Part shown: in pieces, positions 21,664 through 46,677 of the stretch
How the letters are laid out: each line of letters starts with the position of its first letter
Position numbering within the stretch: position 1 is the stretch's first letter
Origin: an uncultured bacterium
GTDB lineage: Bacteria; Verrucomicrobiota; Kiritimatiellia; RFP12; UBA1067
Assembly (NCBI GenBank): GCA_902769585.1
Contig: CACXPT010000022.1
Coordinates: 1 to 50,951 of the forward strand
Length of the DNA: 50,951 nt
Reading direction: 5' to 3'
Made by a program: the position numbers and the translations under genes
Notes under the pieces: model-generated
Told to the model about the DNA's origin: nothing
What the model saw: only the letters and a program-made list of their open reading frames with translations
Databases searched by the model: none

Positions 21664-21720
21664 TTGAATGGTGGGCGCGACTGGACTCGGACCAGTGACC
21701 CCTACCGTGTGAAGGTAGTG
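21664..21720. repeat. attL, 57-bp direct repeat
   Basis: Carries the tRNA-Val 3' segment from the anticodon stem to CCA plus four bases beyond it; identical to 43978-44034. Confidence 0.92.
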
Positions 21721-21852
21721 TCCGAACCGCATAAAATAAGGCTTCGGCTTGCTTTTCGGCCTGATTGTCCGTACTTTTGTTCTTTTTGACCATTGACTTT
21801 GTGGCACTTCGTGAACCGAACGGTCACAAACTCACACGGAGGACACAAAGTC

Positions 21853-23490
21853 ATGGGAATAAGAGTAATCCCGTACCGCGACGGCTACCGGCCCTACTGG
21901 TATGCCGACTACAAGGAGAACGGAAAAGTGCGGCGAATCCGCCTGACGGAGAGGGTCATGGGGGTGCCACCCCCTAGTCTCTCCATAAAGGATGAAGGGA
22001 GCGTCTTGTACGAAAAAAGCAAGGCTCGCGCCCAAGCCGAGTTCGAGGCATTCGAGAACGAGCGGAAGCGGAAAGGCACTTCCGAACGGCTGATGGAAGA
22101 ATTGATTGCCTCCAAGACCGGCATGAAAGTGAGCTATCCCAAGCTCAAGGACCTGGGGAAACTCTGGAATGGGCTGCCGAGGGATAAGCCCTTGAGCGAA
22201 GGCCGTATCGCCAACAACCTTCATGTAGCGGCCGAGTTTGCCGACTACTGCAAGCGCGAATACATCTATGAGGTTACGGCGAAAGACGTCAAGGGCTTCT
22301 TGGAGTGGCTGAAAGCCCAAGGCATAGCCTGGACGACCATAAAGAGCAAGATGTCATTCCTATCGGGAGCATTCGACAAGTTCTATCGAGGGGAAATCAA
22401 CCCGTTCACCCAGGTCATCAAGCGTAATACGGACGTAAGTGCCAAGACCATTCACCGATGCCCGCTCACCAACGAGCAGATAGAGGCACTTCGGGATGCC
22501 GCTCGGGGCGACGACCTGCTTTACCCGCTTGTCGAATGCGGTCTGGCCACAGGCGCGCGGCTCGTGGACATCGTGCACATGCGAAAGGACAACATCGACT
22601 TCAAAGAGGGGTTTGTAAGCTATGTGGCACAAAAGACCGGAACCATGTGCGACATTCCACTCTTTGACGAGTTCCGAAAGGTATGTGAATGCATCGTTAC
22701 CGCCTCCGATCCGTCCGAGCCATATCTTTTCCCCGAAGCGGCACACTTATACGACACGAACCGAACGGGCCTTTGCAACCGGGGCAAACGGCTATTCGCC
22801 AAGGCGCTTTTCAAGGACATAGGCGCATCCCCAAAGGAAACCGTCATCGTAGATGGCAAGCCACAAGAGCCGCTATCCGCCGTGGAGGTCTATGCCCTCA
22901 TCTACAAACAAGGCTACAAACCGCCGAAGGGAGATAGGATGAAGTCTGTGTATGACATGTACATTGTCCAAGGGAAGTCCTACCGGCAAATCGAAAAGGA
23001 ACTTGGGATCCCCCGTTCTTCCATTACCGACTACCTGAAAGCGATGGAGAAGCTAAGCGGGGACACCCTCATTCGTTTCGATGCCAAGCACGGACACATA
23101 ATAGACAAAATAGAAATGACCAGAAAGCATCGCGATGGTGTTAAGCGAGCCGTCTCGATCTACGGTTGGTCGAGCCTCCGCTCTACATTCTGCCGCCTCG
23201 CCATCGAACGGGGGGTGGACGAGAAGATGATAATGCGGGCCGCCGGGCATAGCAACTTCAAGACGACCATGACCTACTACGACAACCCGACCCGTGCCCA
23301 CCAACGAGAGGCAATGAAAGCAAAAATGGCGGCAACGGCAATCGGGCATTCCGCCACCTCTCTTGCGACCACCATCATGGACATGGTAAGTAGGCTGTCG
23401 AGAGACCAACAAGCGCTATTGGCGGGAAAACTTAATGCCTTTTTTGAGAACGGCACCGACACCTTGAAGCAACTTACCGTTTCCGCATAA
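21853..23490 (+). CDS. int: Tyrosine recombinase (island integrase) with an HTH insert
   Basis: 545 aa. It catalyses integration and excision at the tRNA-Val att site. ATG at 21853 (MGIRVIPYRDGYRPYWY) follows GGAGG at suitable spacing. An N-terminal AP2-like arm and a SAM-like core-binding domain (about 100-190) precede the catalytic domain with Arg in TGARLVDIVHM, Lys in VAQKTG, SLRSTFC, AAGHSN and the nucleophile Tyr in MTYYDNP. Between the Lys and the second Arg lies an extra 100 or so residues with a helix-turn-helix (YRQIEKELGIPRSSITDYLK), not usual in this family. It adjoins attL. Confidence 0.93.
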   Translation: MGIRVIPYRDGYRPYWYADYKENGKVRRIRLTERVMGVPPPSLSIKDEGSVLYEKSKARAQAEFEAFENERKRKGTSERLMEELIASKTGMKVSYPKLKDLGKLWNGLPRDKPLSEGRIANNLHVAAEFADYCKREYIYEVTAKDVKGFLEWLKAQGIAWTTIKSKMSFLSGAFDKFYRGEINPFTQVIKRNTDVSAKTIHRCPLTNEQIEALRDAARGDDLLYPLVECGLATGARLVDIVHMRKDNIDFKEGFVSYVAQKTGTMCDIPLFDEFRKVCECIVTASDPSEPYLFPEAAHLYDTNRTGLCNRGKRLFAKALFKDIGASPKETVIVDGKPQEPLSAVEVYALIYKQGYKPPKGDRMKSVYDMYIVQGKSYRQIEKELGIPRSSITDYLKAMEKLSGDTLIRFDAKHGHIIDKIEMTRKHRDGVKRAVSIYGWSSLRSTFCRLAIERGVDEKMIMRAAGHSNFKTTMTYYDNPTRAHQREAMKAKMAATAIGHSATSLATTIMDMVSRLSRDQQALLAGKLNAFFENGTDTLKQLTVSA

Positions 23491-25939: not shown

Positions 25940-26147
25940 TCCAAGCGACCGCAAGGCCGCAACGACCAAACTTCGGCAGGTAGGCGGGGGAGAAATCCCG
26001 TCGAGCGTCGAGGTGGGTAAGCCGTTTCATACGAAATACTACCACAATATTTCTGTTTTGACACAAACGGCACAGGGTAAGTATACCTTCACGGGGTGTA
26101 TTCTGCCCCGTGCATTGTGTCAGCCTGTGGTAGGGCTTCGTATGAGT
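25940..26147 (+). ncRNA. Structured leader RNA upstream of hsdM (candidate)
   Basis: Begins near the predicted transcript start. First a hairpin with a GCAA tetraloop (25945-25960), then CGGG-GGAGAAAT-CCCG (25985-26000). Then a four-part nested stem: CATACGAA/TTCGTATG (26028-26035 with 26137-26144), CTACCACA/TGTGGTAG (26039-26046 with 26126-26133), TGACACA/TGTGTCA (26059-26065 with 26116-26122) and CACGGGG/CCCCGTG (26090-26096 with 26106-26112). 30 base pairs in order. The GGAGAAAT-loop hairpin recurs at 38559-38576 with a different stem. It may be a cis-regulator of the restriction genes or a separate RNA. Confidence 0.6.
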
Positions 26148-26229
26148 GTATGGGGAGCAACAGGTACACCCCGTCTTCATGCACGGAACTTCTCCGACGG
26201 CGGTCGAGGGAGCCACGGAGAACAGAGGC

Positions 26230-27843
26230 ATGTCCAACACAGAGGCGAATCCCGCAGGATCGCACGGAAAGGCTGCCGGCCGCAACGAGCGGGCGGAAGT
26301 CCACAAGGCTATCTGGAAGATAGCCGACGACCTGCGTGGCAAGGTGACGGGCTGGAACTTCATGATCTACGTTCTCGGTACCATCTTCTACCGCTTCATC
26401 TCCGAGATGCTTGAAAGCCGCATGAACGACCATCAGCGGAAGGCGGGACGAATATATTTCGAGTATAGCAAGATGCCTGACGATGCCGCCGACCGTGCTA
26501 AGAAGACGATCACGGACATGCTCGGCTACTACATTCCGCCCTCTCGCCTCTTCCGCAACGTCCGCGAGAAAGAGCGTAACAATCCCGACCTCAACATCTT
26601 CCTCCACGATGCCCTTGCCGCGATTGAGGAGTCCGCCAAGGGAACGGAGACGGAACGGGACTTCAAAGGTTTGTTCGAGGGCATGAACTTCAACGACTCG
26701 CAAATCTTTGGCGACACGGTGCCGGAGCGGAACAAGTACATCGTCAAGATCCTGGACGGTATCGCAAGCATGGATCTGGGCGGATTCAGCGAGCATTCCA
26801 TCGACGTGTTCGGCGATGCCTACGAGTTCCTGATGACGATGTATGCCTCCAATGCCGGAAAATCTGGAGGAGAGTTCTTCACCCCGCAGCAGGTTTCGCG
26901 GTTGCTCGCCCTTATCGCGACGAGAGGCAAGAATAAGATCACGAATGTCTATGACCCCGCCTGCGGCTCGGGCTCGCTTCTCATGCAGGTCGCAAAAGTA
27001 ATCGGCAAGGACAACGTGACGGACGGGTTCTACGGGCAGGAGACGGAACCGACGACACATCGACTCTGTCGCATGAACCTCTTCCTCCACGGCATATCCC
27101 CGCACAAGTTCGACATCCACAAGGGTGACACACTGCTCTACCCGAGCGAATTCCACAAGTCAAGAAAGCCGTTCGAGGTGGCCGTCTCGAATCCACCGTA
27201 TTCGACCAAGTGGGACGGGGACGAGAATCCCGTACTTGTTAGCGACGAGCGATTCGCCCCCGCCGGCGCATTGGCACCAAAGAATGCTGCCGATTTCGCA
27301 TTCATCATGCACACACTTTCGTGGCTCGCTCCAAACGGCACGGCAGCGATTGTATGTTTCCCTGGCATTTTCTATCGTACAAACAAAGCGGAGTCAACTA
27401 TCCGCAAGTATCTCATGGAGAACAACTTCGTCGATGCCGTCATCGACCTGCCGCCAAATCTTTTCTTCGGGAACAACACAATTGCCGTTACAATCCTTGT
27501 CCTCAAGAAGAACAAGACGAACGACAACACCGTGCTCTTCATCGACGGCAAAGACCAGTTCATCAAGGACGGCAATAAGAATCGACTCACGGACGAGAAT
27601 ATCGATAACATCTTCAAGCTTTATTGCGACCGAAAAGACGTGCCGCATCGGGCAGCAGTCGTGCCGTTCGAGAAGATACGGGAAGAAGGATTCAACCTGT
27701 CCGTATCAACGTACGTGGAGCCGGAGGACAAGCGGGAGAAGGTGGACATCAAGAAACTCAATGCAGAGATTGCCGAGATTGTGAAACGGGAGAGTGAACT
27801 TCGCGAAGCGGTTGATACTTTCGTGAAGGAGTACGAAAGATGA
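26230..27843 (+). CDS. hsdM: Type I restriction-modification system, methyltransferase subunit
   Basis: 537 aa. N6-adenine methyltransferase that pairs with HsdS to protect host DNA. N-terminal helical domain (KAIWKIADDLRGKVTGWNFM), then SAM-binding motif I DPACGSGSLLMQ (about residue 240) and catalytic motif IV SNPPYSTKW (about residue 320). ATG at 26230 (MSNTEANPAG) follows ACAGAGG; upstream codons lie in the structured leader. The stop overlaps the hsdS start (ATGA), a translational coupling typical of hsd operons. Confidence 0.95.
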   Translation: MSNTEANPAGSHGKAAGRNERAEVHKAIWKIADDLRGKVTGWNFMIYVLGTIFYRFISEMLESRMNDHQRKAGRIYFEYSKMPDDAADRAKKTITDMLGYYIPPSRLFRNVREKERNNPDLNIFLHDALAAIEESAKGTETERDFKGLFEGMNFNDSQIFGDTVPERNKYIVKILDGIASMDLGGFSEHSIDVFGDAYEFLMTMYASNAGKSGGEFFTPQQVSRLLALIATRGKNKITNVYDPACGSGSLLMQVAKVIGKDNVTDGFYGQETEPTTHRLCRMNLFLHGISPHKFDIHKGDTLLYPSEFHKSRKPFEVAVSNPPYSTKWDGDENPVLVSDERFAPAGALAPKNAADFAFIMHTLSWLAPNGTAAIVCFPGIFYRTNKAESTIRKYLMENNFVDAVIDLPPNLFFGNNTIAVTILVLKKNKTNDNTVLFIDGKDQFIKDGNKNRLTDENIDNIFKLYCDRKDVPHRAAVVPFEKIREEGFNLSVSTYVEPEDKREKVDIKKLNAEIAEIVKRESELREAVDTFVKEYER

Positions 27844-29390
27844 AATCCATTGACGAGCTGATTGAGGAGTTCTGCTCCGATGGTGTGGAATGCAAACCGC
27901 TGGGGGAGCTTGGTGATTTCTACGGTGGGCTGACCGGAAAATGCAAGGATGACTTTGGCAATGGAAATGCAAAATTCATTTCCTACATGAATGTGTATTC
28001 CAATTCTGCTACGAACTTGGAAGTGTCTGATACGGTCAATGTCGGACAGAACGAGAAGCAGAATCAAATCCAGTACGGGGATGTGCTTTTTACAGGATCG
28101 TCAGAAACACCAGAAGAATGTGCCATGTCTTCTGTCGTCACAACAGATGTCACGGAGCCAATATACCTAAATAGTTTCTGCTTTGGTTTTAGGCTGTTTG
28201 ACAAATCTCTTTACCATCCTGGCTTCTTGAAACACTTGTTACGAGGTGAAGCGACACGGAAACAATTGTATAAGACGGCGAGCGGTGTCACTCGGTTCAA
28301 TGTCTCTAAACAAAAAATGGCAAGTGTCATTATTCCTCGTCCTCACATTGAAGTCCAAAGTGAAATCGTGCGAATCCTTGACAGCTTCACGGGACTGATA
28401 GCCGAACTGGAGGCGGAACTTGCGGCACGACGAAAGCAGGATGAGCAGTACAGGGATAGTATTCTTGATTTTGGAGATTCTAATATCTATTGTTGCCTCG
28501 ACGATGTCATACTTTCGCTAAACACGGGATTGAATCCTCGGCAATTCTTTAAACTGAATACAAAAGATGCAGCAAATTACTATGTGACCATCAGAGAAAT
28601 CCATGACGGCAAGATAGTATTTTCGGACAAGACGGATAGGATAAACGATACGGCATTGTCGCTTTGCAACAATCGATCCAATCTTGAAGTCGGAGATGTA
28701 CTGTTCTCGGGTACAGGGACGATTGGTGAAACTGCCGTGATTGAGGAACCACCAACAAACTGGAATATAAAGGAGGGTGTGTATGCCGTTAAGCCAGACC
28801 CTTCAAAGGTGTTGCCTAGATACTTGCACTATGCTTTTATGTGTTCGTCTGTTCGCAAGGCCTATGGTGCTAGAATCTTTGGAGGAACTGTAAAAAGTAT
28901 TTCAATGAAGGATTTGCGGAAGATAAAAATTCCGGTTCCTTCTCTACCCGAACAGAAGCGGATCGTTGAAATCCTCGATAAGTTCGATGCCTTGTGCAAC
29001 GACGAGACGGCTGGGCTGGCGGCGGAGATCGCCGCCCGCAAGAAGCAGTACGAATACTACCGCGACAGGTTGCTAACCTTCAAGAGAAAAGAAGAAGGCG
29101 GCAGTGTTGAAAGTGCCAAGAGGGGGAAGCGGAACTCTCCTCGAAAAGGAGGCAGGTACTATACCGAGGATGGAATGGAACGGCTCAAGCGGAGCGGCAT
29201 GAAAGGACATGAAGCCGCAGAGCGGTTGATCGTCGAGCAGATAGGCGAACGGCATCGGTTGCTGCGACCTCTGACGAGAGAGGCCGCAAGTATCCTCAAA
29301 TCGGTGAAGGGAATGATACCACGTGCCTTGTTCCTCTCCAATGCGATTGTTCGCGAGGCAGAGCGCAGGGCGAAGGAGGAGAAAACATGA
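27840..29390 (+). CDS. hsdS: Type I restriction-modification specificity subunit with C-terminal extension
   Basis: 516 aa. Two target-recognition domains (about 15-190 and 205-400), each followed by a coiled linker: LDSFTGLIAELEAELAARRK and LDKFDALCNDETAGLAAEIA. This is the standard two-half layout that sets the bipartite DNA target. After about residue 410 there is an unusual basic extension (KRGKRNSPRKGGRYYTEDGM, then a helical segment) not needed in ordinary HsdS. The stop overlaps the next small gene (ATGA). The TRDs differ from each other, so the target is likely asymmetric. Confidence 0.92.
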   Translation: MKSIDELIEEFCSDGVECKPLGELGDFYGGLTGKCKDDFGNGNAKFISYMNVYSNSATNLEVSDTVNVGQNEKQNQIQYGDVLFTGSSETPEECAMSSVVTTDVTEPIYLNSFCFGFRLFDKSLYHPGFLKHLLRGEATRKQLYKTASGVTRFNVSKQKMASVIIPRPHIEVQSEIVRILDSFTGLIAELEAELAARRKQDEQYRDSILDFGDSNIYCCLDDVILSLNTGLNPRQFFKLNTKDAANYYVTIREIHDGKIVFSDKTDRINDTALSLCNNRSNLEVGDVLFSGTGTIGETAVIEEPPTNWNIKEGVYAVKPDPSKVLPRYLHYAFMCSSVRKAYGARIFGGTVKSISMKDLRKIKIPVPSLPEQKRIVEILDKFDALCNDETAGLAAEIAARKKQYEYYRDRLLTFKRKEEGGSVESAKRGKRNSPRKGGRYYTEDGMERLKRSGMKGHEAAERLIVEQIGERHRLLRPLTREAASILKSVKGMIPRALFLSNAIVREAERRAKEEKT

Positions 29391-31510: not shown

Positions 31511-34500
31511 ATGGAAACGAAATCATACGACAGGGTCGCCGAGATGCCGTGCTACACGGTGGTGAACTCGTACGAGAGACTTCCCGACGAGACAGGCGGC
31601 GCCTACGAGAGCGAAGCGACGATGGAAGCGGGCTTCATCCGCACCCTTGCGCAGCAGGGCTACGAGTACCTTCCAGACGTGAAGAGCGAAGTGTCGTTCA
31701 AGGAGAACCTTCGGCGGCAGATGGAGGCACTGAACCGGGGGGCGCTGAACGGCGGGCGGTTCACCGAAGGCGAATGGCAGCGGTTCTGCGGCGAGGTGCT
31801 GGCGAAGAAGAACGACGGCATAGAGGAGAAAACGGCTAAGTTCCAGGAGGAACGTCGGTTCAAGTTCGATTTCGACGACGGTCATGCGGACAACCTGATG
31901 ATATTCGACGACCGTAACATCAACAACAACTCGCTGCAGGTCATCAACCAGTATCGGGAGGACAATGCGGCGAACGGCAAGAAGGTTCGCTACGACGTGA
32001 CGGTGCTCGTGAACGGCCTGCCGCTCGTGCATATTGAACTCAAGCGGCGGGGAGTGGCGATAAAGGAGGCCTTCAACCAGATTGCGCGGTATTCGCGGGA
32101 CGGTTTCTGGGGCGGCGATGCCCTCTTCGAGTGGGTACAGATATTCGTCATCTCCAACGGCACACACACGAAATACTATGCGAACACGACGAGGCGGGGC
32201 AAGGTAAGGGAGTCGGAGAATGCCGCCGCGTCGCCCGGCAGCCAATCGCACACATCGGAGACGTTCGAGTTCACGAGCTACTGGTCTGATGCGAAGAACA
32301 ACCTCATCGAGGATATCCGCGACTTCGCGAGGACTTTCTTCGCGCAGCAAACGTTGAGGAACATACTCGCCAAGTATTGCGTCTTCACGGTGGACAGATG
32401 CCTCATGGTGATGCGTCCGTACCAGATAGCCGCGACGGAGCGGATTATCGAGAAGATCCGCTATGCGTCCGGGAAGCGGGACATCCTCGGCACGAGGGAT
32501 GCGGGCGGGTATATCTGGCACTCTACCGGAAGCGGCAAGACCCTCACCTCGTTCAAGACGGCGCAGATCGCCTCTCAGCTCGATTACGTGGACAAGGTGC
32601 TGTTCGTGGTGGACAGGCAGGATCTCGACAACCAGACACAACTGGAATACGACAAGTTCCAGAAGGGATGCGTTGCGGGAACGGCGAGCACCAAGGCGCT
32701 AACGGCACAGTTGAGCGATGCCGTCAATAGCGAGAAGTCCAAGATTGTCATCACGACGATACAGAAGCTCTCCATCTTCGTGAAGGAGAACAAGCCCGGA
32801 AGCGTCCATGCGGGAATCTACGACAAGCACGTGGTCATCATCTTCGACGAGTGCCACCGCACACAGTTCGGCAGGATGCACCGAGACATCACGAGGCGCT
32901 TCCGCCGCTACCAGATATTCGGTTTCACGGGGACACCGATATTTGAAGGTCACGAGGCGCAGGCCTTGGTGGTCGACGGTCCCCGGACGACTCCGCAAGT
33001 GTTCGGCGAACGGCTTCACAGCTACACGATGGCGACGGCGATACGGGACAGGAACGTGCTACCATTCCACATCGAGACGATAGGCTGGGCCAAACCTGCG
33101 GAGGGAGAACTTGCGGGGACGAGCGCGGACGAGCGGCAGCCGATGACACCCGAAGAGATGGCGTTGATGCCGAGGCGGCCGGAGCAGATAGAGAAGATCG
33201 TCGCATACGTCCTCGGACACTATGCAGCCAAGACCTTGCAGGCGAAAAAATACATGCACAAGGTGGAGCAAAAGAAAGGTGCGCGGAAAGGCAAGGACGA
33301 GAAACGGCTCGTGAGCGGCTTCAACTCCATTTTCGCCGTGAACTTCATCGACGAGGCCAAGGCATACTACACGGAGTTCAAGAGGCAGATAGCGGCATTG
33401 CCGGAGGGACATCCCGCGAAGGGGCTCAAGATCGCGACCATCTTCACCGCCACACCCAACGAGGGGGAAAAGGAGGGCGTGATCGTAGATGACAACGGAT
33501 GGCTCATTGACGACGAGGGCGATCCGTCCTCGCTCGATGCCACGTCGAAGGAATTCCTCGAATCGGCGATGGCGGACTACAACCTCCTCTTTCCCGCACA
33601 GGGTGCGACTGGTTTCTCGGCGAAGGACGGCGACGCCTTCCACAACTACTACATCGACGTCTCCACGAAGATGAAGAACCGCGAGCTGGACATGCTGATC
33701 GTGGTGAACATGTTCCTGACTGGATTCGATGCAAAGACCTTGAATACGTTGTGGCTCGACAAGAACCTCAAGCTCCACACCCTCGTGCAGGCCTATTCGC
33801 GGACGAACCGCATCCTCAATTCCATAAAGCAATGTGGCAATATCATCTGCTTCCGCGACCTCGAAGATGCGACCAACGAGGCAATTGCGTTGTTCAGCGA
33901 CAGCGAGAACGGCGAGGAAGCGTCCGAGATAATCAAGATCAAGACGTTCGACGAATACTATTCCACGGGTTTCAGCAACCACAAGGGCGAGCATGTCAAG
34001 AGCTATACGGAACTTGTGGCGGAACTGCAGGCGAAGTTCCCGCCTGACAAGGAGATAGAAGGCAACGAGGCGAAGGAGGAGTACGTGCAGCTCCTTGGCG
34101 AGGTGTTGAAGCGGCAGAACCTCCTGCGGATATTTGACGAGTACGAGGATGAGCGGGAGGAGAAGCAGATAATCCCGCCCCTTGCCATGCAGGACTACAT
34201 CAGCAGGTACCTCGACATCCGAGACGAGATGGTTGACCAGGCACCATCGCCACCACTGGATCCCAACGTAATCGCCAAGACCGGAGATGACGAGGATGAC
34301 GATGAAGAAGCGTCGGACGAAGAGCCTGAGCAAGAGCAAGTTCCATGCGACGGCATTTCGTTTGAGCTGGAGCTGATCCGGCAGTTCGACGTGGACTTCG
34401 ACTATATCCTCATGCTCATAGACGACTACCACGAGGCCGACGAGGCGGAGCGGAAGCCGATTCTCGAGAAGATCGTGCGGGCCATCAGGTCGAGCGAAAC

Positions 34501-34846
34501 CCTCCGTCCGAAAAAGGACCTCATCATGGACTTCATTGAGCGGTACGACGATTCCCGCAAATGGCAGGCGTTCGTGCGGTGGCGGCTTGAAGAGGATATA
34601 CGGGGGCTTTCGGAGCGGCTTGGGCTTGATGCGGCGGCGGTGAAGGAGTTCATCAGCAATGCCATCGGCACGAGACGGCTCATGACGGTCGGCCCGAACT
34701 TCGACAACATGATTCCGCCGATGGACTTGTTTGGCGACAAGGAAGCGGCCGAGAGGGCGGAGGTGAAACGACGGGAGGTCGCCGCAGAGATGACGGCGCT
34801 CTACAACCGCTACAAGGATGACTATTCGGAGGCAGTGGACGTGTAA
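31511..34846 (+). CDS. hsdR: Type I restriction-modification system, restriction (motor/nuclease) subunit
   Basis: 1111 aa. N-terminal PD-(D/E)xK nuclease: YDVTVLVNGLPLVHIELKRR (about 160-180). SF2 translocase: Walker A STGSGKT (about 338), VDRQDLDNQT, DECHRTQFGRM (about 445), FGFTGTPIF, and later VVNMFLTGFDAK with QAYSRTNRI. The C-terminal helical region binds the HsdMS complex. It cuts unmodified DNA far from the recognition site after translocation. ATG at 31511 follows AAAGGAAACGG. All catalytic motifs appear intact. Confidence 0.95.
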   Translation: METKSYDRVAEMPCYTVVNSYERLPDETGGAYESEATMEAGFIRTLAQQGYEYLPDVKSEVSFKENLRRQMEALNRGALNGGRFTEGEWQRFCGEVLAKKNDGIEEKTAKFQEERRFKFDFDDGHADNLMIFDDRNINNNSLQVINQYREDNAANGKKVRYDVTVLVNGLPLVHIELKRRGVAIKEAFNQIARYSRDGFWGGDALFEWVQIFVISNGTHTKYYANTTRRGKVRESENAAASPGSQSHTSETFEFTSYWSDAKNNLIEDIRDFARTFFAQQTLRNILAKYCVFTVDRCLMVMRPYQIAATERIIEKIRYASGKRDILGTRDAGGYIWHSTGSGKTLTSFKTAQIASQLDYVDKVLFVVDRQDLDNQTQLEYDKFQKGCVAGTASTKALTAQLSDAVNSEKSKIVITTIQKLSIFVKENKPGSVHAGIYDKHVVIIFDECHRTQFGRMHRDITRRFRRYQIFGFTGTPIFEGHEAQALVVDGPRTTPQVFGERLHSYTMATAIRDRNVLPFHIETIGWAKPAEGELAGTSADERQPMTPEEMALMPRRPEQIEKIVAYVLGHYAAKTLQAKKYMHKVEQKKGARKGKDEKRLVSGFNSIFAVNFIDEAKAYYTEFKRQIAALPEGHPAKGLKIATIFTATPNEGEKEGVIVDDNGWLIDDEGDPSSLDATSKEFLESAMADYNLLFPAQGATGFSAKDGDAFHNYYIDVSTKMKNRELDMLIVVNMFLTGFDAKTLNTLWLDKNLKLHTLVQAYSRTNRILNSIKQCGNIICFRDLEDATNEAIALFSDSENGEEASEIIKIKTFDEYYSTGFSNHKGEHVKSYTELVAELQAKFPPDKEIEGNEAKEEYVQLLGEVLKRQNLLRIFDEYEDEREEKQIIPPLAMQDYISRYLDIRDEMVDQAPSPPLDPNVIAKTGDDEDDDEEASDEEPEQEQVPCDGISFELELIRQFDVDFDYILMLIDDYHEADEAERKPILEKIVRAIRSSETLRPKKDLIMDFIERYDDSRKWQAFVRWRLEEDIRGLSERLGLDAAAVKEFISNAIGTRRLMTVGPNFDNMIPPMDLFGDKEAAERAEVKRREVAAEMTALYNRYKDDYSEAVDV

Positions 34847-37848: not shown

Positions 37849-38436
37849 ATGTCCGAAAGACACCTATACGGAAGCGATGGCCGACACGTTGGTAGCATTG
37901 ACGATGACGACCGCATCTACGACGATCGCCATTCGTTCATTGGGAGAATCGAGAACGGGACCATCTACGACAACTGCAACAGACCGCAGGGACGTATAAC
38001 AGATAGCGGGATGGTGCTGGACAACCACCGGCAGGAGATCGGGCAGGAGTACGGGACAGGATTTTCTTCGCCAGGCCCGAGACGGGAGATGGGGATTGTG
38101 CGGGCCGACATACTGAGCGAAGGCCACGGCAGCGACTACGGGGCATTCCATCTGCTCGACCGCAATCAGCGGCACAGATACGATACATACCCATACGATG
38201 AAGACGACGGAGAATCCGACGACAATGACGACTATGGGGATGACGATAGCGACGATGACGTATATGTTCCACCGTCTCGGTCAAAGCGCCGTTCCGGGCG
38301 AGGAAAGAATGGCGAAGTAATATCGCACGACGATCCAGAGGCAAGTTGCGCCGGGTGCGGGTGTCTAGTGCTTTTCGTCATAGGTATCTTAATTGTGCTT
38401 CGGCTATATTCCGGTGTCCCGTTCTCGCAATGGTGA
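37849..38436 (+). CDS. Predicted membrane-anchored protein with short beta repeats
   Basis: 195 aa. The N-terminal half repeats a G-x-I-x(5)-IYD pattern (HVGSIDDDDRIYDDRHSF, IGRIENGTIYDNCNR, GRITDSGMVLDN), reminiscent of beta-flower-like domains. An acidic linker (DEDDGESDDNDDYGDDDSDD) and a basic patch lead to a single C-terminal transmembrane helix (CGCLVLFVIGILIVLRLY). Start 37849 after AAGGAGG. Tail-anchored topology is inferred. Last gene before the ncRNA. Confidence 0.7.
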   Translation: MSERHLYGSDGRHVGSIDDDDRIYDDRHSFIGRIENGTIYDNCNRPQGRITDSGMVLDNHRQEIGQEYGTGFSSPGPRREMGIVRADILSEGHGSDYGAFHLLDRNQRHRYDTYPYDEDDGESDDNDDYGDDDSDDDVYVPPSRSKRRSGRGKNGEVISHDDPEASCAGCGCLVLFVIGILIVLRLYSGVPFSQW

Positions 38437-38477: not shown

Positions 38478-38507
38478 TTGACAGCCGCTGCCGATGTGTG
38501 GTAACAT
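38478..38507 (+). promoter_or_regulatory. Strong sigma-70-type promoter of the island ncRNA
   Basis: Perfect TTGACA (38478-38483), 18 bp, TAACAT (38502-38507) with TGG before it (extended -10). Confidence 0.65.
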
Positions 38508-38513
38508 GTGTGC

Positions 38514-38693
38514 CGACGAAGCATCAAGAGGTTCTTGCGAAAGCAAGGCGCCAACCGAGCAGGGGAGAAATCCTGCCACGGTGGACTCTGCGAAGCGGCG
38601 CGAGCCGCCAGCAGGATGTGCCCTTCGGGTGAAGGGAAAACATCTTAGGTAAAGAGCCATCCGATTGATGTATATCGGGTGGCTTCGTTGTTT
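38514..38693 (+). ncRNA. Structured non-coding RNA candidate with own promoter and terminator
   Basis: Five or more stable hairpins: CTTGC-GAAA-GCAAG (38534-38547) within GGTT...AACC; GCAGG-GGAGAAAT-CCTGC (38559-38576); CTGC...GCAG enclosing GCGGC-GCGA-GCCGC (38588-38614); GATGT...ACATC enclosing CCCTTC-GGGT-GAAGGG (38615-38644); and a terminator stem of ten pairs (38656-38683) with a T-rich tail. The first two match the hsdM leader in order and type (GNRA hairpin, then the same GGAGAAAT octaloop on a different stem). No known RNA family is recognised. Confidence 0.65.
38656..38693 (+). terminator. Terminator-like stem of the ncRNA
   Basis: GCCATCCGAT (38656-38665), eight-base loop, ATCGGGTGGC (38674-38683), then TTCGTTGTTT. 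Confidence 0.6.
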
Positions 38694-38739
38694 GCGGGGA
38701 ATAGTCCCACCTCCGACGTGTTTCATCAAGGAAGGCACG

Positions 38740-39543
38740 ATGGACGAAGTGGAATTCGACAGGGAGTTCGAGAACCTGCGCCTACGGCACGAGGCGCTCA
38801 AGGAGCAGGTGGCGAACCAGATCGAGATGTATACGCATCTTGTCGAGACGGAAGGGCCGAACATCGAGGCCCAGTACATGATGCTCGTGGGACAGCTCGA
38901 ATGCCAGGCGATGCGGCTGGACATGGAGGTCAGGCGCTGGAAGCGGCGCTTCACTCTCCGCCAGATGTATGTCAACCGGGGCGAGAAACCGGACCCGGTG
39001 GCCATCGAGGCGCTACTCGACAAGGAGTTTGGCGCATGGCGCGAGAAGATCGCCGCATTGGTAAAGAAGCTCGAGGGTTCGAAGCTCCAGTTCGACACTG
39101 TGAAGATGTCGGACACCGACACTAACGCGATCCGCTGCGAATATCTCAAGGCGGTGAAGAAGCTTCACCCCGACCTCAACAAGGACCTGTCCGATGCGGC
39201 GGTGAGCCTCTGGAACCAGATCCAGAAGGCTTATGCCGCGAAGAGCTGGCGGCAGCTCAAGTTCCTCGTCTCGCTCGTGGACGAGGCGGTCGTCGGCACG
39301 TCTGACTTTCCCGCTACGCCGGACGGACTTGCCGCGCTGCGCGAGGCTTGCGCGCAACTTGAGGCGAAGGGCCGCGAGGTGGCGGAACGGATCGCGGCCT
39401 TGAAGGCGACCGTGCCCTTCACCTACGAAGTGTTGCTGGAGGACCCGCTCCTGCTTGAAAGGAAGCAGAATTCGCTCAGGGGCAAGATCAAGGACCTGAA
39501 GGCCGCCATCGGGAAGTACGAGGAGGAGTGGGACAATGGCTAA
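38740..39543 (+). CDS. Coiled-coil protein with a J-like domain
   Basis: 267 aa from ATG 38740 (MDEVEFDREFENLRLRHEAL), after AAGGAAGG. An N-terminal coiled coil (about 1-60) and helical body precede a J-like segment: CEYLKAVKKLHPDLNKDLSD with the HPD tripeptide near residue 143 and WNQIQKAYAAKSW. A second coiled coil closes the protein. The DnaK-activating HPD suggests recruitment of Hsp70. Starts a seven-gene operon and overlaps the next gene by 8 bp. Confidence 0.72.
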   Translation: MDEVEFDREFENLRLRHEALKEQVANQIEMYTHLVETEGPNIEAQYMMLVGQLECQAMRLDMEVRRWKRRFTLRQMYVNRGEKPDPVAIEALLDKEFGAWREKIAALVKKLEGSKLQFDTVKMSDTDTNAIRCEYLKAVKKLHPDLNKDLSDAAVSLWNQIQKAYAAKSWRQLKFLVSLVDEAVVGTSDFPATPDGLAALREACAQLEAKGREVAERIAALKATVPFTYEVLLEDPLLLERKQNSLRGKIKDLKAAIGKYEEEWDNG

Positions 39544-39928
39544 CGAACTGGCTATCATCGAGAAGAACTGGCTGACGCTTGCCGACCAGGTAGGAAACCT
39601 GCCCGCACCTTTCGAGCAGACGATATTCCTGACGGAGTGCCACCTTGCGGGGACGGCGGAGATAGAGGATATGCTCGTCAAGACGCAGGACGTCGATGCC
39701 GGAACGGAGCTTGTCTTGAAGCGTACCGGAGCGGATGCGGAAGATTGGTGCGCCATCGCCGCACGGACTCCCGCCGGTGCCATCATCGGCTACGTGCCGC
39801 GCCGCCACGGCGCCGTCATGGCGAGATTGATGGACTCGGGGAAGAAGCTTTCCGCCAAGGTCGTCGGTAAGGAGCTTGAGGGCCATTGGCTGGACGTCAC
39901 GGTTGCAATCGAAATGAAGGAGGCATGA
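39536..39928 (+). CDS. HIRAN-domain protein
   Basis: 130 aa. Fits HIRAN: a beta-rich LVLKRTGADAEDWCAIAART then PAGAIIGYVPRRHGAVMARL with the conserved GYVPR. HIRAN domains recognise 3' ends or damaged DNA in Rad5/HLTF and appear alone in bacteria. Overlaps the previous gene; two bp before the next. Confidence 0.75.
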   Translation: MANELAIIEKNWLTLADQVGNLPAPFEQTIFLTECHLAGTAEIEDMLVKTQDVDAGTELVLKRTGADAEDWCAIAARTPAGAIIGYVPRRHGAVMARLMDSGKKLSAKVVGKELEGHWLDVTVAIEMKEA

Positions 39929-39929
39929 A

Positions 39930-40751
39930 ATGACAAAGGCAAATAGCGAAGAGACAAAAGCTCCGGCGTGTCCGTTTGCGGCTCAATGGGTTGAAGCGGC
40001 AAAACTGGTGTTCCTTGCAAATCCAGGGTGGAAGCGCATCTACGACGAGGCGCCGTCTGGCGCGAAACGACGCCTTGAGATTTCGTTCTGGTTCACGGAG
40101 AACCTAAGCGGACGGAAGGATTGCCCCGACATGCTCGCGGCATATCGCGAATGGCGCGAAGACGTGGAGAGAGCAATGACCGAAGAGGACATAATATACA
40201 TGTTCAAGACGATGGACAAGCCGGCGGCGAAAGAACACTACAAATCTCTCCTGAAGGGATTGAGGACGCATTCGCACGTCGGCAAGTCCGGAGTGGCGCT
40301 GATGTCGTATGACGATTTCTTCGCTATGCTGGACGAGCAAGGTGAATTCCAGTCGCCCGCATACGACGACGAGACGAAGGAGTCGATCATCGCCGAATTC
40401 CTGCCCGTGCTGAAGGGGTCGGGCGACCCGCTGGAGACGCACGTCGAGGACATCCTCGCGACGGCGGAGCTGAAGGAGGTGCGCGTCTATCCAAAGGGCG
40501 AGCTGATGTACGTCCGCGTCATGGTGCGCTTCCTCACCGAAACGGCGGAATGGAGCGATCTATACCAGATGCTGGCCGCCTGGGATTGCATCCACGACCT
40601 GAAAGGCTATGTGTTCCCCGTAGGGAAGGGACATAGAAGCGAGTTGCCGATCGAGCTGGAGAATCCCGAGAACAAGGCGCAACATGAGAAGCGCATGCAA
40701 CTTATGGCGATACGGGTCGCCGCAACGACGAAACAGAAAGGAGTAAAATGA
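39930..40751 (+). CDS. Unknown protein with the Y-x-x-A-x-x-G-A-K module
   Basis: 273 aa. The N-terminal part (about 20-100) holds the module shared with the three last genes of the island: WKRIYDEAPSGAKRRLEISF followed by an acidic spacer and EEDIIYMFKTMD. The rest (LMSYDDFFAMLDEQGEFQSP, VEDILATAELKEVRVYPKGE) is unassigned mixed alpha/beta. No known family. Start overlaps the previous stop region closely, supporting one operon. Confidence 0.7.
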   Translation: MTKANSEETKAPACPFAAQWVEAAKLVFLANPGWKRIYDEAPSGAKRRLEISFWFTENLSGRKDCPDMLAAYREWREDVERAMTEEDIIYMFKTMDKPAAKEHYKSLLKGLRTHSHVGKSGVALMSYDDFFAMLDEQGEFQSPAYDDETKESIIAEFLPVLKGSGDPLETHVEDILATAELKEVRVYPKGELMYVRVMVRFLTETAEWSDLYQMLAAWDCIHDLKGYVFPVGKGHRSELPIELENPENKAQHEKRMQLMAIRVAATTKQKGVK

Positions 40752-41395
40752 AAACGAATGCAATATTCGGCAAGGAGACTGTGTCGATTCACAGTCGTTG
40801 CATGCGCTACATGCCGCGAAATGGACACATGACGGATGAGGCCCCATTTGATCTCTACGGCGACCTTGAGGATGCCTACGACGAGGCGGATCGCGACGGC
40901 GACGTGGAGATCGTGGAGACGCTGGACACATTCGGGCTTTGGGACGGAAATCCTAAATGCGACCGTTCGTGGATGCACAAGATGTGGCGTGCCCTGAAAG
41001 GAGACGTCGAGGCCCAGGCGGACGTCGGATATGCCTTCTACTGGAACGACCACGATCCGGAGGATGTACGGGAAACGTATAAATGGCTGGACAAGCCGGA
41101 ACTTGCGATCTACTGGTACAGACTTGCGGCGGAGGCCGGATATGCCGCCGCCCAGAGCGACCTCGCATGTCTATACTGTCCCGATATGATTCCATACGAC
41201 AACAAGTTCAAGCTCGGTCGTTTCGCCCGCCGTTGGTGGGAGGAGGCCGCCGCGCAGAAACTGCCCTGCGGTATGCTCGGCCTTGCAAAATGCCTCCGGT
41301 GCGGGAAATGCTACGACTGCAATCGCGACATACCGCGCGCCAAGGCGCTTGAAGCCGAGGCCGATCGCATGGAAGGTAATCAAAATCGCTTATGA
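40748..41395 (+). CDS. Sel1-like repeat protein
   Basis: 215 aa starting in the stop of the previous gene (ATGA). Sel1/TPR-like repeats: ALKGDVEAQADVGYAFYWND, ELAIYWYRLAAEAGYAAAQS, DLACLY, then WWEEAAAQKLPCGMLGLAKC. A cysteine cluster (CLRCGKCYDCN) may bind a metal. Sel1 proteins are scaffolds for protein-protein contacts. Confidence 0.78.
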   Translation: MKTNAIFGKETVSIHSRCMRYMPRNGHMTDEAPFDLYGDLEDAYDEADRDGDVEIVETLDTFGLWDGNPKCDRSWMHKMWRALKGDVEAQADVGYAFYWNDHDPEDVRETYKWLDKPELAIYWYRLAAEAGYAAAQSDLACLYCPDMIPYDNKFKLGRFARRWWEEAAAQKLPCGMLGLAKCLRCGKCYDCNRDIPRAKALEAEADRMEGNQNRL

Positions 41396-41411
41396 ATGAA
41401 AGGAACTGGTA

Positions 41412-42311
41412 ATGGACAGGACTATGAGAGGTGTAAAGGGCGTCGAAGCACTTGAAGAGTGCATCAAGATGTGGCGGCTCAATCGGACTTCCCCCGCTCA
41501 ACGGCGGAAGCGGGGAAGGATCCAAGAGCCGCCCGGCGGTTTCTGCTCAATGGACGACGAGACATGGGATCATGTCATTTCCACCCGAGGATGCGGAGCG
41601 ACGATATGCGGCTACGGTCAACAACGGGCATACGTGCAGTTCATGCCCAAAGGCACGAAGTGGCTCTATATGCGGGAGAAGGAATTGATTGCCGCGAAAG
41701 ACTCCCTCCCTAATGACATGACGAACGTCGCCAAATCGCGGGTGGCGGAGTTCCGCCGCACGAAGCGTGGGCGAGCGATTTACGGAAATGCCCCGAAGGG
41801 CGCAAAGCTCTTCTACCAACGAGGACTCAATGGAATAGAGTATGGCGAGAAGCCCGTCTATGACCACTATCGCATGATGGATGACGCTTCATGGAACTAC
41901 ATCATAGCCCATGCCGAGACAGTCCCCCTCAAGGCCGACCTCGCCGATATTCGAAAGCACATGCAGGGCCAGCCCGAAGGCACAAACATGTTCTGGTGGC
42001 GGGGGCGGCATCGTCCGATGAATGCGGATTCGTTCGACGAGGCGAAGATGCGGGAGATCGCCGCCGAACTCGCACTCGCCAAGATGGGCTACGACGACGG
42101 GCGGATGTGGTACACGAACGAGTGCCGCGACATGACGTTGGAGGCGATGCGGCTAAGCGGCCTCAAGGCGCTCTATCTCGACTTGCCGAAAGAGGGATAT
42201 GGAAGCGCCAACTTCTTCTTCCGGGGGCCGTTCTGGGACTTGCACTATTGGGATCCAACATCCCAAAAGAGATTTGTCGATGTCGTCCATAAGATGTGGA
42301 CAGGGAAATGA
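41412..42311 (+). CDS. Unknown protein with repeated P-x-G-A/T-K modules
   Basis: 299 aa. Repeats of one module: QFMPKGTKWLYMREKEL, IYGNAPKGAKLFYQRGLNG, QGQPEGTNMFWWRGRHRP, and DLPKEGYGSANFFFRG. Each is linked to a W-x-(Y/H)-(I/V)-I helix: MDDETWDHVISTRG and MDDASWNYIIAHAE. No known family. Aromatic-rich. Related to the genes at 39930, 42325 and 42649. Confidence 0.7.
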   Translation: MDRTMRGVKGVEALEECIKMWRLNRTSPAQRRKRGRIQEPPGGFCSMDDETWDHVISTRGCGATICGYGQQRAYVQFMPKGTKWLYMREKELIAAKDSLPNDMTNVAKSRVAEFRRTKRGRAIYGNAPKGAKLFYQRGLNGIEYGEKPVYDHYRMMDDASWNYIIAHAETVPLKADLADIRKHMQGQPEGTNMFWWRGRHRPMNADSFDEAKMREIAAELALAKMGYDDGRMWYTNECRDMTLEAMRLSGLKALYLDLPKEGYGSANFFFRGPFWDLHYWDPTSQKRFVDVVHKMWTGK

Positions 42312-42324
42312 AAGGAGAAAGCAC

Positions 42325-42639
42325 ATGAGAAACAAAGTTGTTGCGCTCAATCAAAAATACCAGACGGGGGTGGACTTCTATCAGAAGCGGCCTTGGCGGC
42401 AGCTCTACCTTGGAGCACCCGAAGGAGCCAAAAGGTATTACGAGATAAGCTTCTACGGAGGAGTCCTCTTTTACGGGGGTATGACCGTCAACCACGATAC
42501 GGAAGAAGAAAAGCAAGATCTCATTGCCGTCTATCGCAGCCTCACTGACGAGGATTGGGACTATATCATCGGCCACACCCGTTGGGGTATGGCAAAATGG
42601 GGACTAAACCAAGCCCGCGAGAAGTACGGCAAAAAATAG
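42325..42639 (+). CDS. Small protein with one copy of the shared module
   Basis: 104 aa, start 42325 after AAAGGAGAAAGC. A single clean module: RQLYLGAPEGAKRYYEISFY then SLTDEDWDYIIGHTRWGMAK. Useful as a reference unit for the family. Function unknown. Confidence 0.7.
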   Translation: MRNKVVALNQKYQTGVDFYQKRPWRQLYLGAPEGAKRYYEISFYGGVLFYGGMTVNHDTEEEKQDLIAVYRSLTDEDWDYIIGHTRWGMAKWGLNQAREKYGKK

Positions 42640-42648
42640 AGGTAGTCT

Positions 42649-43647
42649 ATGAAAACTAAAAAACATTTCTACGAGAACATGCAGGCAATGGCGGAATGCC
42701 TTGCCAAAGACCCAGAGACAAAAGACCGCTATGACAAGGCCACACACGGCGGCAAGGAGTGGTTTTGCTTCTCAAGTTGGATAAAGGGAAACATGGCAAG
42801 GTGGAACGATGCCGAGGCTGTAGAGTATCGTGATGCCCTTGTCGGCAGGCTCATCTCTACCGACATCGCCTATGTTCTCCAATACGAAACTGTCCCTGAT
42901 GTGGTTGCCTACTTAAAGGGCGAGCTCATCGCCGCCGTAGGGCGGGAGACGTTCCCCGAACAACTCGCGAAGCGAGGCGATTGGACGGCCAATGCACGAA
43001 TACGATGGAGGCACATAACCGCAAATCCCCCACAGGAGGCCGAGAGTTGGAGCGGTCGCAAGATTCAGATTGGCACTTGCTTCTACTCGAAGATGCTACC
43101 AATCAAAGAGGCGCTATCAAAGGATTCGGACACAAAACAGCATTACGAGTTCCTAAGGTACGGCGGCAAGGAATGGCTTTGCTACTCATGGTGGATTTCT
43201 GAAGACCGCACACGATGGAACGACCCGGAAGCGGTAGAATACCGCGATTCGCTCACCTCGTGGCTAGACTCTATCGACATCGTATATGTCCTCCAGCTTG
43301 AGACGGATACAGAAATCGTGGACTACTTGAGAAACCGCCTTGTTGCCACATTGGAGCGCGAAACGACACCGGGAAGGCTACACCTTAGAAGTACGATTCT
43401 TGGACGAGGATTACACAAGCCTTGGAAAGGGCCGGAGGGACTTAAGACCACAAGCCAAGTGGCGGCACAATATGGTAGCGGGTGCGGTATGATATGCAGG
43501 TTCTATAGCGCCATGAAAGGTTATGCGGACTATCTCCGGGGCAATGCACCTGGTCCTAGCTTCTGGACACATCCCGACGTCAAACTTCATATCAAGTGGC
43601 ACAACCGATACAGTTCTCCGACGAACGGGATTTGTCGTGTGCAATGA
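42649..43647 (+). CDS. Unknown protein with two tandem copies of the shared module
   Basis: 332 aa. Copy 1 (about 8-105): DRYDKATHGGKEWFCFSSWI, NDAEAVEYRDALVGRL, STDIAYVLQYET. Copy 2 (about 145-245): QHYEFLRYGGKEWLCYSWWI, NDPEAVEYRDSLTSWL, SIDIVYVLQLET. A third partial start (CRFYSAMKGYADYLRG) ends the protein. Last gene of the operon, followed by a strong terminator. Confidence 0.72.
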   Translation: MKTKKHFYENMQAMAECLAKDPETKDRYDKATHGGKEWFCFSSWIKGNMARWNDAEAVEYRDALVGRLISTDIAYVLQYETVPDVVAYLKGELIAAVGRETFPEQLAKRGDWTANARIRWRHITANPPQEAESWSGRKIQIGTCFYSKMLPIKEALSKDSDTKQHYEFLRYGGKEWLCYSWWISEDRTRWNDPEAVEYRDSLTSWLDSIDIVYVLQLETDTEIVDYLRNRLVATLERETTPGRLHLRSTILGRGLHKPWKGPEGLKTTSQVAAQYGSGCGMICRFYSAMKGYADYLRGNAPGPSFWTHPDVKLHIKWHNRYSSPTNGICRVQ

Positions 43648-43697: not shown

Positions 43698-43733
43698 TGC
43701 CCGCGCGCATGTGCACGCGCGGGCATTGTTTTT
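43698..43733 (+). terminator. Strong Rho-independent terminator of the second island operon
   Basis: TGCCCGCGCG...CGCGCGGGCA stem followed by TTGTTTTT. Confidence 0.85.
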
Positions 43734-43737
43734 GCCA

Positions 43738-43977: not shown

Positions 43978-44034
43978 TTGAATGGTGGGCGCGACTGGAC
44001 TCGGACCAGTGACCCCTACCGTGTGAAGGTAGTG
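43978..44034. repeat. attR, 57-bp direct repeat
   Basis: Identical to 21664-21720; forms the 3' part of the intact tRNA-Val. Confidence 0.92.
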
Positions 44035-44059
44035 CTCTAACCAACTGAGCTACGCGCCC
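43983..44059 (-). tRNA. tRNA-Val(CAC)
   Basis: 77 nt including encoded CCA. Acceptor GGGCGCG/CGCGCCC, D-arm GCTCAGTTGGTTAGAGC, anticodon stem CTACC/GGTAG with loop TTCACAC (anticodon CAC reading GTG), and T-loop region GGTCCGAGTCC. The 3' part lies within attR, so the island keeps the gene functional. Confidence 0.95.
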
Positions 44060-45717: not shown

Positions 45718-46677
45718 TCACGCTTCCTCCCACTGGCGGCGCAGGAGAGAAACCATGTTCTTGATGAGCACATGCTTCTCGTCGTCGCTTGGCATGATGG
45801 GCTTGCCGCGGGCATCCTTGCCCTTTGGCGGGTAGCCGCACTCCATCGACACCGCGCCGCGGTAGCCGATGAACTTGAGTCCCTTGAAGCCGTCAACGTA
45901 GTTGTCGAGCTCGCCGTCAGTGCCGGGCACCTTGCGGTTGCCGAGCGAGGCGATGTGGACGTGCTTGAGGAGCTTTCCTGCCGCCACGAACGCGGCGAAG
46001 TAGCTTGGCTCCTCCCACATCATGTGCCAGAAATCGCCCATCACCGCGCAGCCCTTGCCGATCTCCTGCGCCATCTTGGCGGCGTCTGCCACCTGGCGCA
46101 TGAACGGCGTCTCGCCGCGGCGCAGCGGCTCCAGGACGATCTCCGTGCCGCACGCGGCCGCCTTTTCGGCGAGGCGCTTGCCCGTGTTCGTGACGAAGTC
46201 CTCGCGGAGCTCCTTCAGGCCCACTTCCGGCTTGCCGCGGGCGGGGCAGATGATGAGTCCGACGCTCTTCATCTGACCGAGGATCTCGAGGACCGGCATG
46301 AACCTTTCAACCTCGGCGTCGTTCTTCGACTTGTCGGCGTAGTCGAAGCGGGAAGGCCCGCACGCCGTCGTGAGGAAGAGCTTGCGGCCCTTGAGCGCGT
46401 CCACGAGCTTCGGCCCCTGATCGCGCAGCCACTCGAGCTTGGAGGTGATCTCCACCGCCTGGAAGTCGTTCTGCTCAAGGTAGTCAAGCTTCGCGTTGAT
46501 GTCGTCCTTCGTGGGAATCAGCCACCACTGGAGGCAGAGGTTGAGCTGTGCGGGCTTCGCGGGAGGCGTCAGCTTCGGCATGCCGCTGCAGCAAGGCTTG
46601 CAGGCGTCGCCTGCAGCCGGAAGCGCCGCCGCGAGCCCCGCGACCGTGCTCCCTGCCAAGAATTCACGTCGATTCAT
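45718..46677 (-). CDS. Sugar phosphate isomerase/epimerase-like TIM barrel, Tat-exported
   Basis: 319 aa. Tat signal MNRREFLAGSTVAGLAAALP. AP-endonuclease-2/xylose isomerase-like barrel: NDFQAVEITSKLEWLRDQGP, GTEIVLEPLRRGETPFMRQV (metal Glu), CAVMGDFWHMMWEE (Asp/His), KHVHIASLGNRKVPGTD (His) and GAVSMECGYP (Glu). Acts on a free sugar or hydroxy-acid. Upstream of the Gfo/Idh gene; such pairs often share one pathway. Confidence 0.85.
   Translation of the reverse strand: MNRREFLAGSTVAGLAAALPAAGDACKPCCSGMPKLTPPAKPAQLNLCLQWWLIPTKDDINAKLDYLEQNDFQAVEITSKLEWLRDQGPKLVDALKGRKLFLTTACGPSRFDYADKSKNDAEVERFMPVLEILGQMKSVGLIICPARGKPEVGLKELREDFVTNTGKRLAEKAAACGTEIVLEPLRRGETPFMRQVADAAKMAQEIGKGCAVMGDFWHMMWEEPSYFAAFVAAGKLLKHVHIASLGNRKVPGTDGELDNYVDGFKGLKFIGYRGAVSMECGYPPKGKDARGKPIMPSDDEKHVLIKNMVSLLRRQWEEA

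What the first reader, a model, noticed from the sequence alone, without database searches (positions are those of the whole stretch)
38740..43647. Seven-gene operon joining J-domain, HIRAN, Sel1 and the new module: candidate defence system
Genes overlap or lie within 20 bp, are headed by an ncRNA, end in a strong terminator, and lie in a tRNA island beside a restriction system. HIRAN (DNA end sensing), J-like (chaperone recruitment) and Sel1 (scaffold) form a plausible sensor-effector set not matching any system I know.
Basis: inference. Interest (0 to 1): 0.88.

Follow-up and report, generated by a model that had tools for sequence, protein, structure and literature searches.

The report
SAM-riboswitch-headed genomic island operon
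A run of seven little-known genes at the end of a mobile DNA island in a gut Kiritimatiellae bacterium really is a conserved operon, and the RNA in front of it belongs to a family of SAM-sensing riboswitches that head many island operons in this group, suggesting the genes are switched on when the cell runs out of the methyl donor SAM, for example during phage attack.

Summary
In detail: seven same-strand genes, overlapping or 1-16 bp apart, a structured RNA upstream and a strong terminator downstream, at the attR end of a 22.4-kb tRNA-Val island that also carries an integrase and a type I restriction system. J, HIRAN, the module protein P3 and the Sel1-like P4 recur together in five Kiritimatiellae loci (window included), and reduced sets recur in others. 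P5 and P6 form a second travelling pair. P7 is an orphan, so the unit is 4+2+1 rather than seven.

It is a diverged SAM-I/IV riboswitch-type leader. In six relatives of the operon the same leader passes Rfam's threshold. A distinct leader subtype, separate from the host metK leader, heads 18 loci of the order. These carry J operons, MoxR-VWA-SAM-synthetase operons, a lone SAM synthetase, module proteins and others. Folding suggests a translational OFF switch: when the SAM-bound aptamer forms, the ribosome site is masked.

Best reading: an accessory island operon expressed when SAM is scarce. Defence is plausible (RM neighbours, islands, patchy spread, J/HIRAN) but unproven, and no known defence system matches.

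The parts
21664..21720 (.). attL: copy of part of the tRNA-Val gene, perfect 57-bp direct repeat
21793..23490 (+). Tyrosine recombinase (integrase) of the island
   Evidence: Pfam Phage_integrase 5e-13
26146..27843 (+). HsdM, type I restriction methyltransferase
   Evidence: Pfam 4e-104, PADLOC
27840..29390 (+). HsdS specificity subunit
31511..34846 (+). HsdR restriction subunit
38478..38507 (+). Promoter-like TTGACA-N18-TAACAT ending 8 nt before the RNA; same spacing as in relative L017 (TTGACA-N18-TACAAT)
   Evidence: sequence
38516..38652 (+). SAM-I/IV riboswitch-type aptamer (diverged; 34.3 bits against the Rfam cut-off of 41.1)
   Evidence: relatives above the cut-off
38654..38685 (+). 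Leader hairpin H1, same place as in relatives but different sequence
38690..38708 (+). Conserved leader motif GTTTGCGGGGAATNGTCCC shared with relatives
38705..38717 (+). Predicted anti-Shine-Dalgarno segment, also complementary to the aptamer 5' strand
38728..38735 (+). Shine-Dalgarno sequence of the J gene
   Evidence: sequence
38740..39543 (+). P1: J-domain protein with HPD and coiled-coil-like flanks
39536..39928 (+). P2: stand-alone HIRAN protein
39930..40751 (+). P3: N-terminal module plus a C-terminal domain of unknown fold
40748..41395 (+). P4: Sel1-like protein with a conserved acidic N-terminus and a CLxCGxC motif
41412..42311 (+). P5: module-containing protein of the travelling P5-P6 pair
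42325..42639 (+). P6: single-module protein
42649..43647 (+). P7: protein with two modules; no full-length relative found
43698..43734 (+). Intrinsic terminator
   Evidence: z -3.2, U tract
43978..44034 (.). attR: 57-bp repeat inside tRNA-Val
43983..44059 (-). tRNA-Val(CAC), integration target

Best explanation
The seven genes are the attR-end cargo operon of a tRNA-Val integrative element. They are transcribed from one promoter into an mRNA whose leader descends from a SAM-I/IV riboswitch. With ample SAM the aptamer holds its own 5' strand, the downstream pyrimidine-rich segment (anti-SD) is free and masks the ribosome-binding site, and translation is low. When SAM falls, the aptamer 5' strand pairs with that segment instead, the ribosome-binding site is freed and the operon is made. 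The conserved core (module protein P3, J protein, HIRAN protein, Sel1-like P4) most likely forms one complex in which the J protein recruits the DnaK chaperone and HIRAN touches nucleic acid. The likeliest purpose is a stress or defence response of the island to conditions that drain SAM, such as a phage SAM-degrading enzyme or heavy methyltransferase activity, which would also disable the neighbouring SAM-dependent restriction systems. Shown by computation: the operon, the island, conserved co-occurrence, purifying selection, the leader's homology and its RF01725 identity in relatives. Predicted: the OFF switch. Inferred: SAM binding, the protein complex, the defence role.
For: J-HIRAN-P3-P4 co-occur in L014 and in L062, L063, L064 (order P3-J-HIRAN-P4); J-HIRAN-P4 in L015; J-HIRAN plus a P3-C-terminus/Sel1 fusion in L061. 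RF01725 above cut-off in front of the operon in L017, L014, L003 and L062, L063, L064; genome-wide E 0.0019 for the window copy. Window leader shares an exact 19-nt motif (0 expected by chance) and the H1 hairpin position. A CM of the subtype gives 18 strong hits in 162 genomes of the order, heading J operons, MoxR-VWA-MetK operons and a lone MetK-like gene, which points to SAM as ligand. Forcing P1 lowers ribosome-site accessibility from 0.71 to 0.40 in 19 leaders (controls change 0.01-0.13). Island and RM context. Patchy spread, 10 of 162 genomes. dN/dS 0.14-0.36.
Against: The window aptamer is below Rfam's cut-off, no pseudoknot partner is evident in it, and its predicted switch is weaker than in most relatives (0.67 to 0.48). 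Anti-SD/SD covariation is not significant (P 0.16). Two J-HIRAN loci (L015, L016) lack a detectable leader. No PADLOC system and no phage-encoded relative. J and Sel1 matches in the window are below Pfam cut-offs. Nothing links the proteins to phage inhibition directly.
Confidence: 0.55

Rival explanations
1. Methionine/SAM-starvation operon: the leader works as above, but the genes serve protein quality control or metabolism under nutrient stress and have nothing to do with phages.
For: The same leader subtype heads SAM synthetase relatives and an N-formylglutamate amidohydrolase. The J protein fits chaperone work. The module also occurs in chromosomal membrane proteins.
Against: Patchy, island-borne distribution and RM neighbours at window, L064 and L014 are unusual for a metabolic operon. 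HIRAN is a nucleic-acid-binding domain in its solved relatives.
Confidence: 0.25
2. Island housekeeping: the genes serve the element itself (stability, excision, transfer), and the leader times this by SAM level.
For: Leader and tRNA-Val end are shared by window, L017, L062 and L114 while the genes between them turn over.
Against: J operons also lie away from that tRNA (no tRNA found in L014, L063, L064). No transfer or replication proteins in the operon.
Confidence: 0.15
3. The window leader is a decayed riboswitch and the window operon is now constitutive or dying, although the family elsewhere is functional.
For: 34.3 bits, no clear pseudoknot, a large insertion in the aptamer, a weaker predicted switch, orphan P7.
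Against: Core nucleotides, hairpin H1, the 19-nt motif, promoter spacing and all reading frames are kept; dN/dS is low.
Confidence: 0.2

Closest known systems
SAM-I/IV riboswitch (Rfam RF01725)
   Same: Same aptamer core (CAUCA-GAG, CCAACC, GGUG, GAUG); six relatives of the operon pass the Rfam cut-off.
   Different: Here it heads island cargo rather than housekeeping SAM genes. The leader runs about 95 nt beyond the aptamer with its own hairpin and a predicted long-range anti-SD switch. The window copy is below the cut-off. The host's own metK leader is a separate subtype.
HIRAN-domain proteins (PF08797; PADLOC candidate PDC-M03B)
   Same: P2 is a HIRAN domain by Pfam and PDB comparison; the PDC-M03B match covers the HIRAN part only.
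   Different: Stand-alone 130-aa protein, no helicase or nuclease partner; PDC-M03 membership not met.
MoxR-VWA systems
   Same: The same leader subtype controls MoxR-VWA operons in relatives.
   Different: Those operons end in a divergent SAM synthetase and share no gene with the J operon.
Catalogued anti-phage systems (PADLOC-DB 2.0)
   Same: Island position beside type I and type III RM systems.
   Different: No operon protein matches a PADLOC model except the HIRAN domain.

Membership tests
SAM-I/IV riboswitch RF01725 | Rfam gathering score 41.1 bits | tested here: not met
   Window 34.3 bits. Met by the leaders of six relatives of the operon: 50.9, 49.7, 48.0, 53.1, 49.1, 43.1.
SAM-I/IV riboswitch RF01725 | SAM-pocket nucleotides as in SAM-I (residues 6-8, 11-12, 44-47, 57-59, 87, listed in PMC6890682) | tested here: met
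   By eye, window AUC..GA, CAAC, UG and A of GAUG are kept; position 59 is G instead of C, as in the host metK leaders.
SAM-I/IV riboswitch RF01725 | Pseudoknot between the P3 loop and the 3' end | tested here: inconclusive
   Relatives have GGAACA/UGUUCC in the right places; no clear partner in the window by eye.
SAM-I/IV riboswitch RF01725 | Binds SAM and changes gene expression | not testable with these tools
   Needs probing and reporters; predicts an OFF switch.
HIRAN domain PF08797 | Pfam gathering score | tested here: met
   35.2 bits against 24.7; PDB 3k2y 9e-12.
J-domain PF00226 | Pfam gathering score | tested here: not met
   24.8 bits against 27.8.
J-domain PF00226 | HPD motif | tested here: met
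   H143 P144 D145 invariant in 5 homologues.
Sel1 repeat PF08238 | Pfam gathering score | tested here: not met
   Window 16.2 against 30.7; the fused relative L061 scores 59.3.
Known anti-phage defence system | Match to a catalogued system | tested here: not met
   only HIRAN similarity to PDC-M03B.
Known anti-phage defence system | Protection against phage | not testable with these tools
   Experiment needed.
tRNA-integrated genomic island | Integrase plus direct repeats at a tRNA gene | tested here: met
   57-bp perfect repeat, tyrosine recombinase, tRNA-Val.

The most novel reading that the evidence does not exclude
A SAM-depletion alarm: phages that destroy SAM to escape restriction thereby switch on a second, riboswitch-controlled layer of island-borne immunity (J-HIRAN operon, MoxR-VWA with a back-up SAM synthetase, module proteins), one riboswitch regulon spread over mobile elements.
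Probability: 0.22. Interest if true: 0.93.

Novelty: new variant of a known kind. Interest (0 to 1): 0.74.

Why it matters
No paper found here describes a metabolite riboswitch shared by several unrelated cargo operons of mobile elements, or one sensing SAM in an immunity setting (the searches were limited to open papers). Phage T3 makes a SAMase that both degrades SAM and inhibits SAM synthetase (PMC8406200), so a SAM-gated cargo that includes a divergent SAM synthetase would be a direct and testable counter-move. It also defines an undescribed protein module and a four-gene J-HIRAN system whose function can now be assayed under the right condition, low SAM.

Tried and rejected
Seven genes as one conserved system: rejected; only P3, J, HIRAN and P4 travel together, P5-P6 separately, P7 alone. 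Unknown ncRNA class: rejected in favour of RF01725. H1 hairpin as a SAM-controlled terminator: not favoured; its arms do not overlap the aptamer, and only the G145 copies (L112, L113) have a good U tract. Leader as a DNA recombination site: not favoured; conservation starts about 8 nt after the -10 box, where transcription should start. Anti-SD/SD covariation: not significant (P 0.16); covariation of the 5' strand with the anti-SD segment P 0.006, uncorrected for relatedness. Structure of P3: pLDDT 63, no PDB fold match at E 0.001; P5: pLDDT 37, unusable. Relatives in viral contigs and phage records: none. A first blind pattern search of the genome was useless. R1 finds the window leader only weakly (17.6 bits) and a similar-scoring chance-like hit at 45875, so the window assignment rests on RF01725, the 19-nt motif and synteny. 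The 45875 hit is not supported by RF01725.

Full report
What is there. The host belongs to Kiritimatiellae, judged from its named relatives in GTDB genomes; its assembly is 4.9 Mb in 365 contigs. A perfect 57-bp direct repeat (21664-21720 and 43978-44034) lies in tRNA-Val(CAC). With a tyrosine recombinase just inside the left copy, it delimits a 22.4-kb integrative element. Inside lie HsdM, HsdS, an unassigned 608-aa protein and HsdR, then small genes including a DUF6717 protein and a beta-flower protein, and last the operon, ending next to attR.

Is it more than chance? Homologues of the J protein occur in 10 of 162 genomes of the order. A scan of about 85,000 species genomes found nine loci, all in Kiritimatiellae/Verrucomicrobia-type or unnamed gut metagenome assemblies. 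In L014 the order is leader, J, HIRAN, P3, P4, as in the window. In L062, L063 and L064 it is leader, P3, J, HIRAN, P4 (in L062 a 108-aa reading frame lies between leader and P3). L015 keeps J-HIRAN-P4. L061 keeps J-HIRAN followed by one 399-aa protein that joins the P3 C-terminal region to Sel1 repeats. Such a fusion suggests that P3 and P4 act together. P5 and P6 recur at the tRNA-Val end in L017 (62-65% identity) and L062 (P6 truncated there), with or without the core. P7 has only partial relatives. Pairwise dN/dS for J, HIRAN and P3-P6 is 0.14-0.36, so these genes are under selection.

The module. A profile finds it in 21 of 162 genomes, in two settings: island proteins and N-terminal parts of chromosomal proteins, several with a predicted-looking membrane segment, with a consensus like C-x2-DPEL-x2-YF-x2-APPGAK-x-FI-x-L-x-FY. 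On 11 of the 25 contigs with a module a SAM-I/IV-type leader lies upstream on the same strand. One protein (L131) fuses the module to Sel1-like repeats. No Pfam, NCBIfam or PADLOC family matches it, and the P3 model, of moderate confidence, has no convincing PDB match.

The leader. Rfam places a SAM-I/IV riboswitch at 38516-38652 with 34.3 bits, below the 41.1 cut-off. Over the whole genome this has E 0.0019, and the only better hit is the leader of the host's own metK. In six relatives the same family passes the cut-off directly in front of the operon or its remnant. The leaders of the mobile group form a tight subtype, clearly different from the metK group. Conservation begins about 8 nt after a promoter-like -10 box and runs about 190 nt, across the aptamer, a hairpin and a block GUUUGCGnGGnAnnGUCCC. 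The window leader contains that block exactly as in L017 (0 expected by chance) and a hairpin of different sequence in the same place, which supports homology of the whole leader. A covariance model of the subtype has 18 strong hits in the order and none elsewhere in a sample of 388 genomes of the phylum. The 18 head: J operons (5), a J remnant with P5-P6 (1), MoxR-VWA operons that in the complete cases end in a divergent SAM synthetase (6), another SAM synthetase relative (1), an N-formylglutamate amidohydrolase (1), module proteins (2) and beta-flower proteins (2). Two kinds of SAM synthetase under the same leader make SAM the likely ligand.

How it probably works. The aptamer's 5' strand (UCAAG..UCAGGAG) is complementary to a segment before the ribosome site (CUUCCUGA..CUUGA), as RNAalifold also proposes. 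That pairing cannot coexist with the folded aptamer. The segment can instead pair with the purine-rich ribosome site. When P1 is forced, accessibility of the ribosome site drops from 0.71 to 0.40 on average in 19 leaders; 14 drop by more than 0.05, none rises by that much. Shuffling the segment reduces the effect to 0.01-0.13. The leaders are related, so the Wilcoxon P value (2e-6) overstates independence. In the window the effect is smaller (0.67 to 0.48). This predicts a translational OFF switch: low SAM, more protein. It is a prediction from folding, not a measurement.

What the proteins might do. A J protein with HPD normally stimulates DnaK (established knowledge). HIRAN domains of HLTF bind DNA ends (established knowledge), but the usual N-x-Y-D stretch is mostly changed here (D kept in 8 of 9), so end sensing is uncertain. 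Sel1 repeats are usually scaffolds. Context favours conflict with foreign DNA: type I RM in the window and beside L064, type III RM plus a Z1/MzaC-like protein in the same contig region as L014, and RM genes next to the MoxR operon in L113. All RM methyltransferases use SAM, and phage T3 SAMase both destroys SAM and blocks SAM synthetase (PMC8406200). An operon that switches on when SAM falls would act exactly when restriction fails. This last step is inference; starvation response and island housekeeping remain open.

Verdict. The new point is the SAM-riboswitch-type leader and the shared regulon-like set of island operons behind it.

Noticed in passing
L080:4784-9492, also L068, L070, L078, partial in L069, L071, L113: Operon of MoxR AAA+ ATPase, a small protein, a VWA/DUF2201-like protein and a divergent SAM synthetase under the same SAM-I/IV leader subtype; GGPEGD, GLSGKK and GKDP motifs are kept.
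   Followed up: partly
L112:8033-9153 (-): A second, different SAM-synthetase relative directly behind the mobile-type leader.
   Followed up: partly
window 37849-38436 and L073, L074: The beta-flower protein gene just upstream of the window leader has relatives that lie directly behind the same leader subtype in G009 and G011.
   Followed up: no
G000:C32:15298-15543, G003:C36, G001:C209, G006:C145, G014:C131, G147:C7: The module is also the N-terminal domain of apparently chromosomal proteins with a membrane-like segment in this order.
   Followed up: partly
L017:7690-8390 and L120:7802-8014: J genes reduced to their first 49-71 codons, in L017 with a new gene starting inside; signs of gene turnover behind the leader.
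   Followed up: partly
L062:5014-5916, L114, L121, L067: ADP-ribosylglycohydrolase-like genes recur behind the same kind of leader or next to J or module genes.
   Followed up: no
window 29648-31474: 608-aa protein of unknown family between HsdS and HsdR.
   Followed up: no
window 45875-45972: Weak hit (15 bits) of the leader model outside the island, not supported by RF01725; probably chance.
   Followed up: partly
L072 and L116: N-formylglutamate amidohydrolase-like genes behind the leader in two genomes, apparently a remnant in L116.
   Followed up: no
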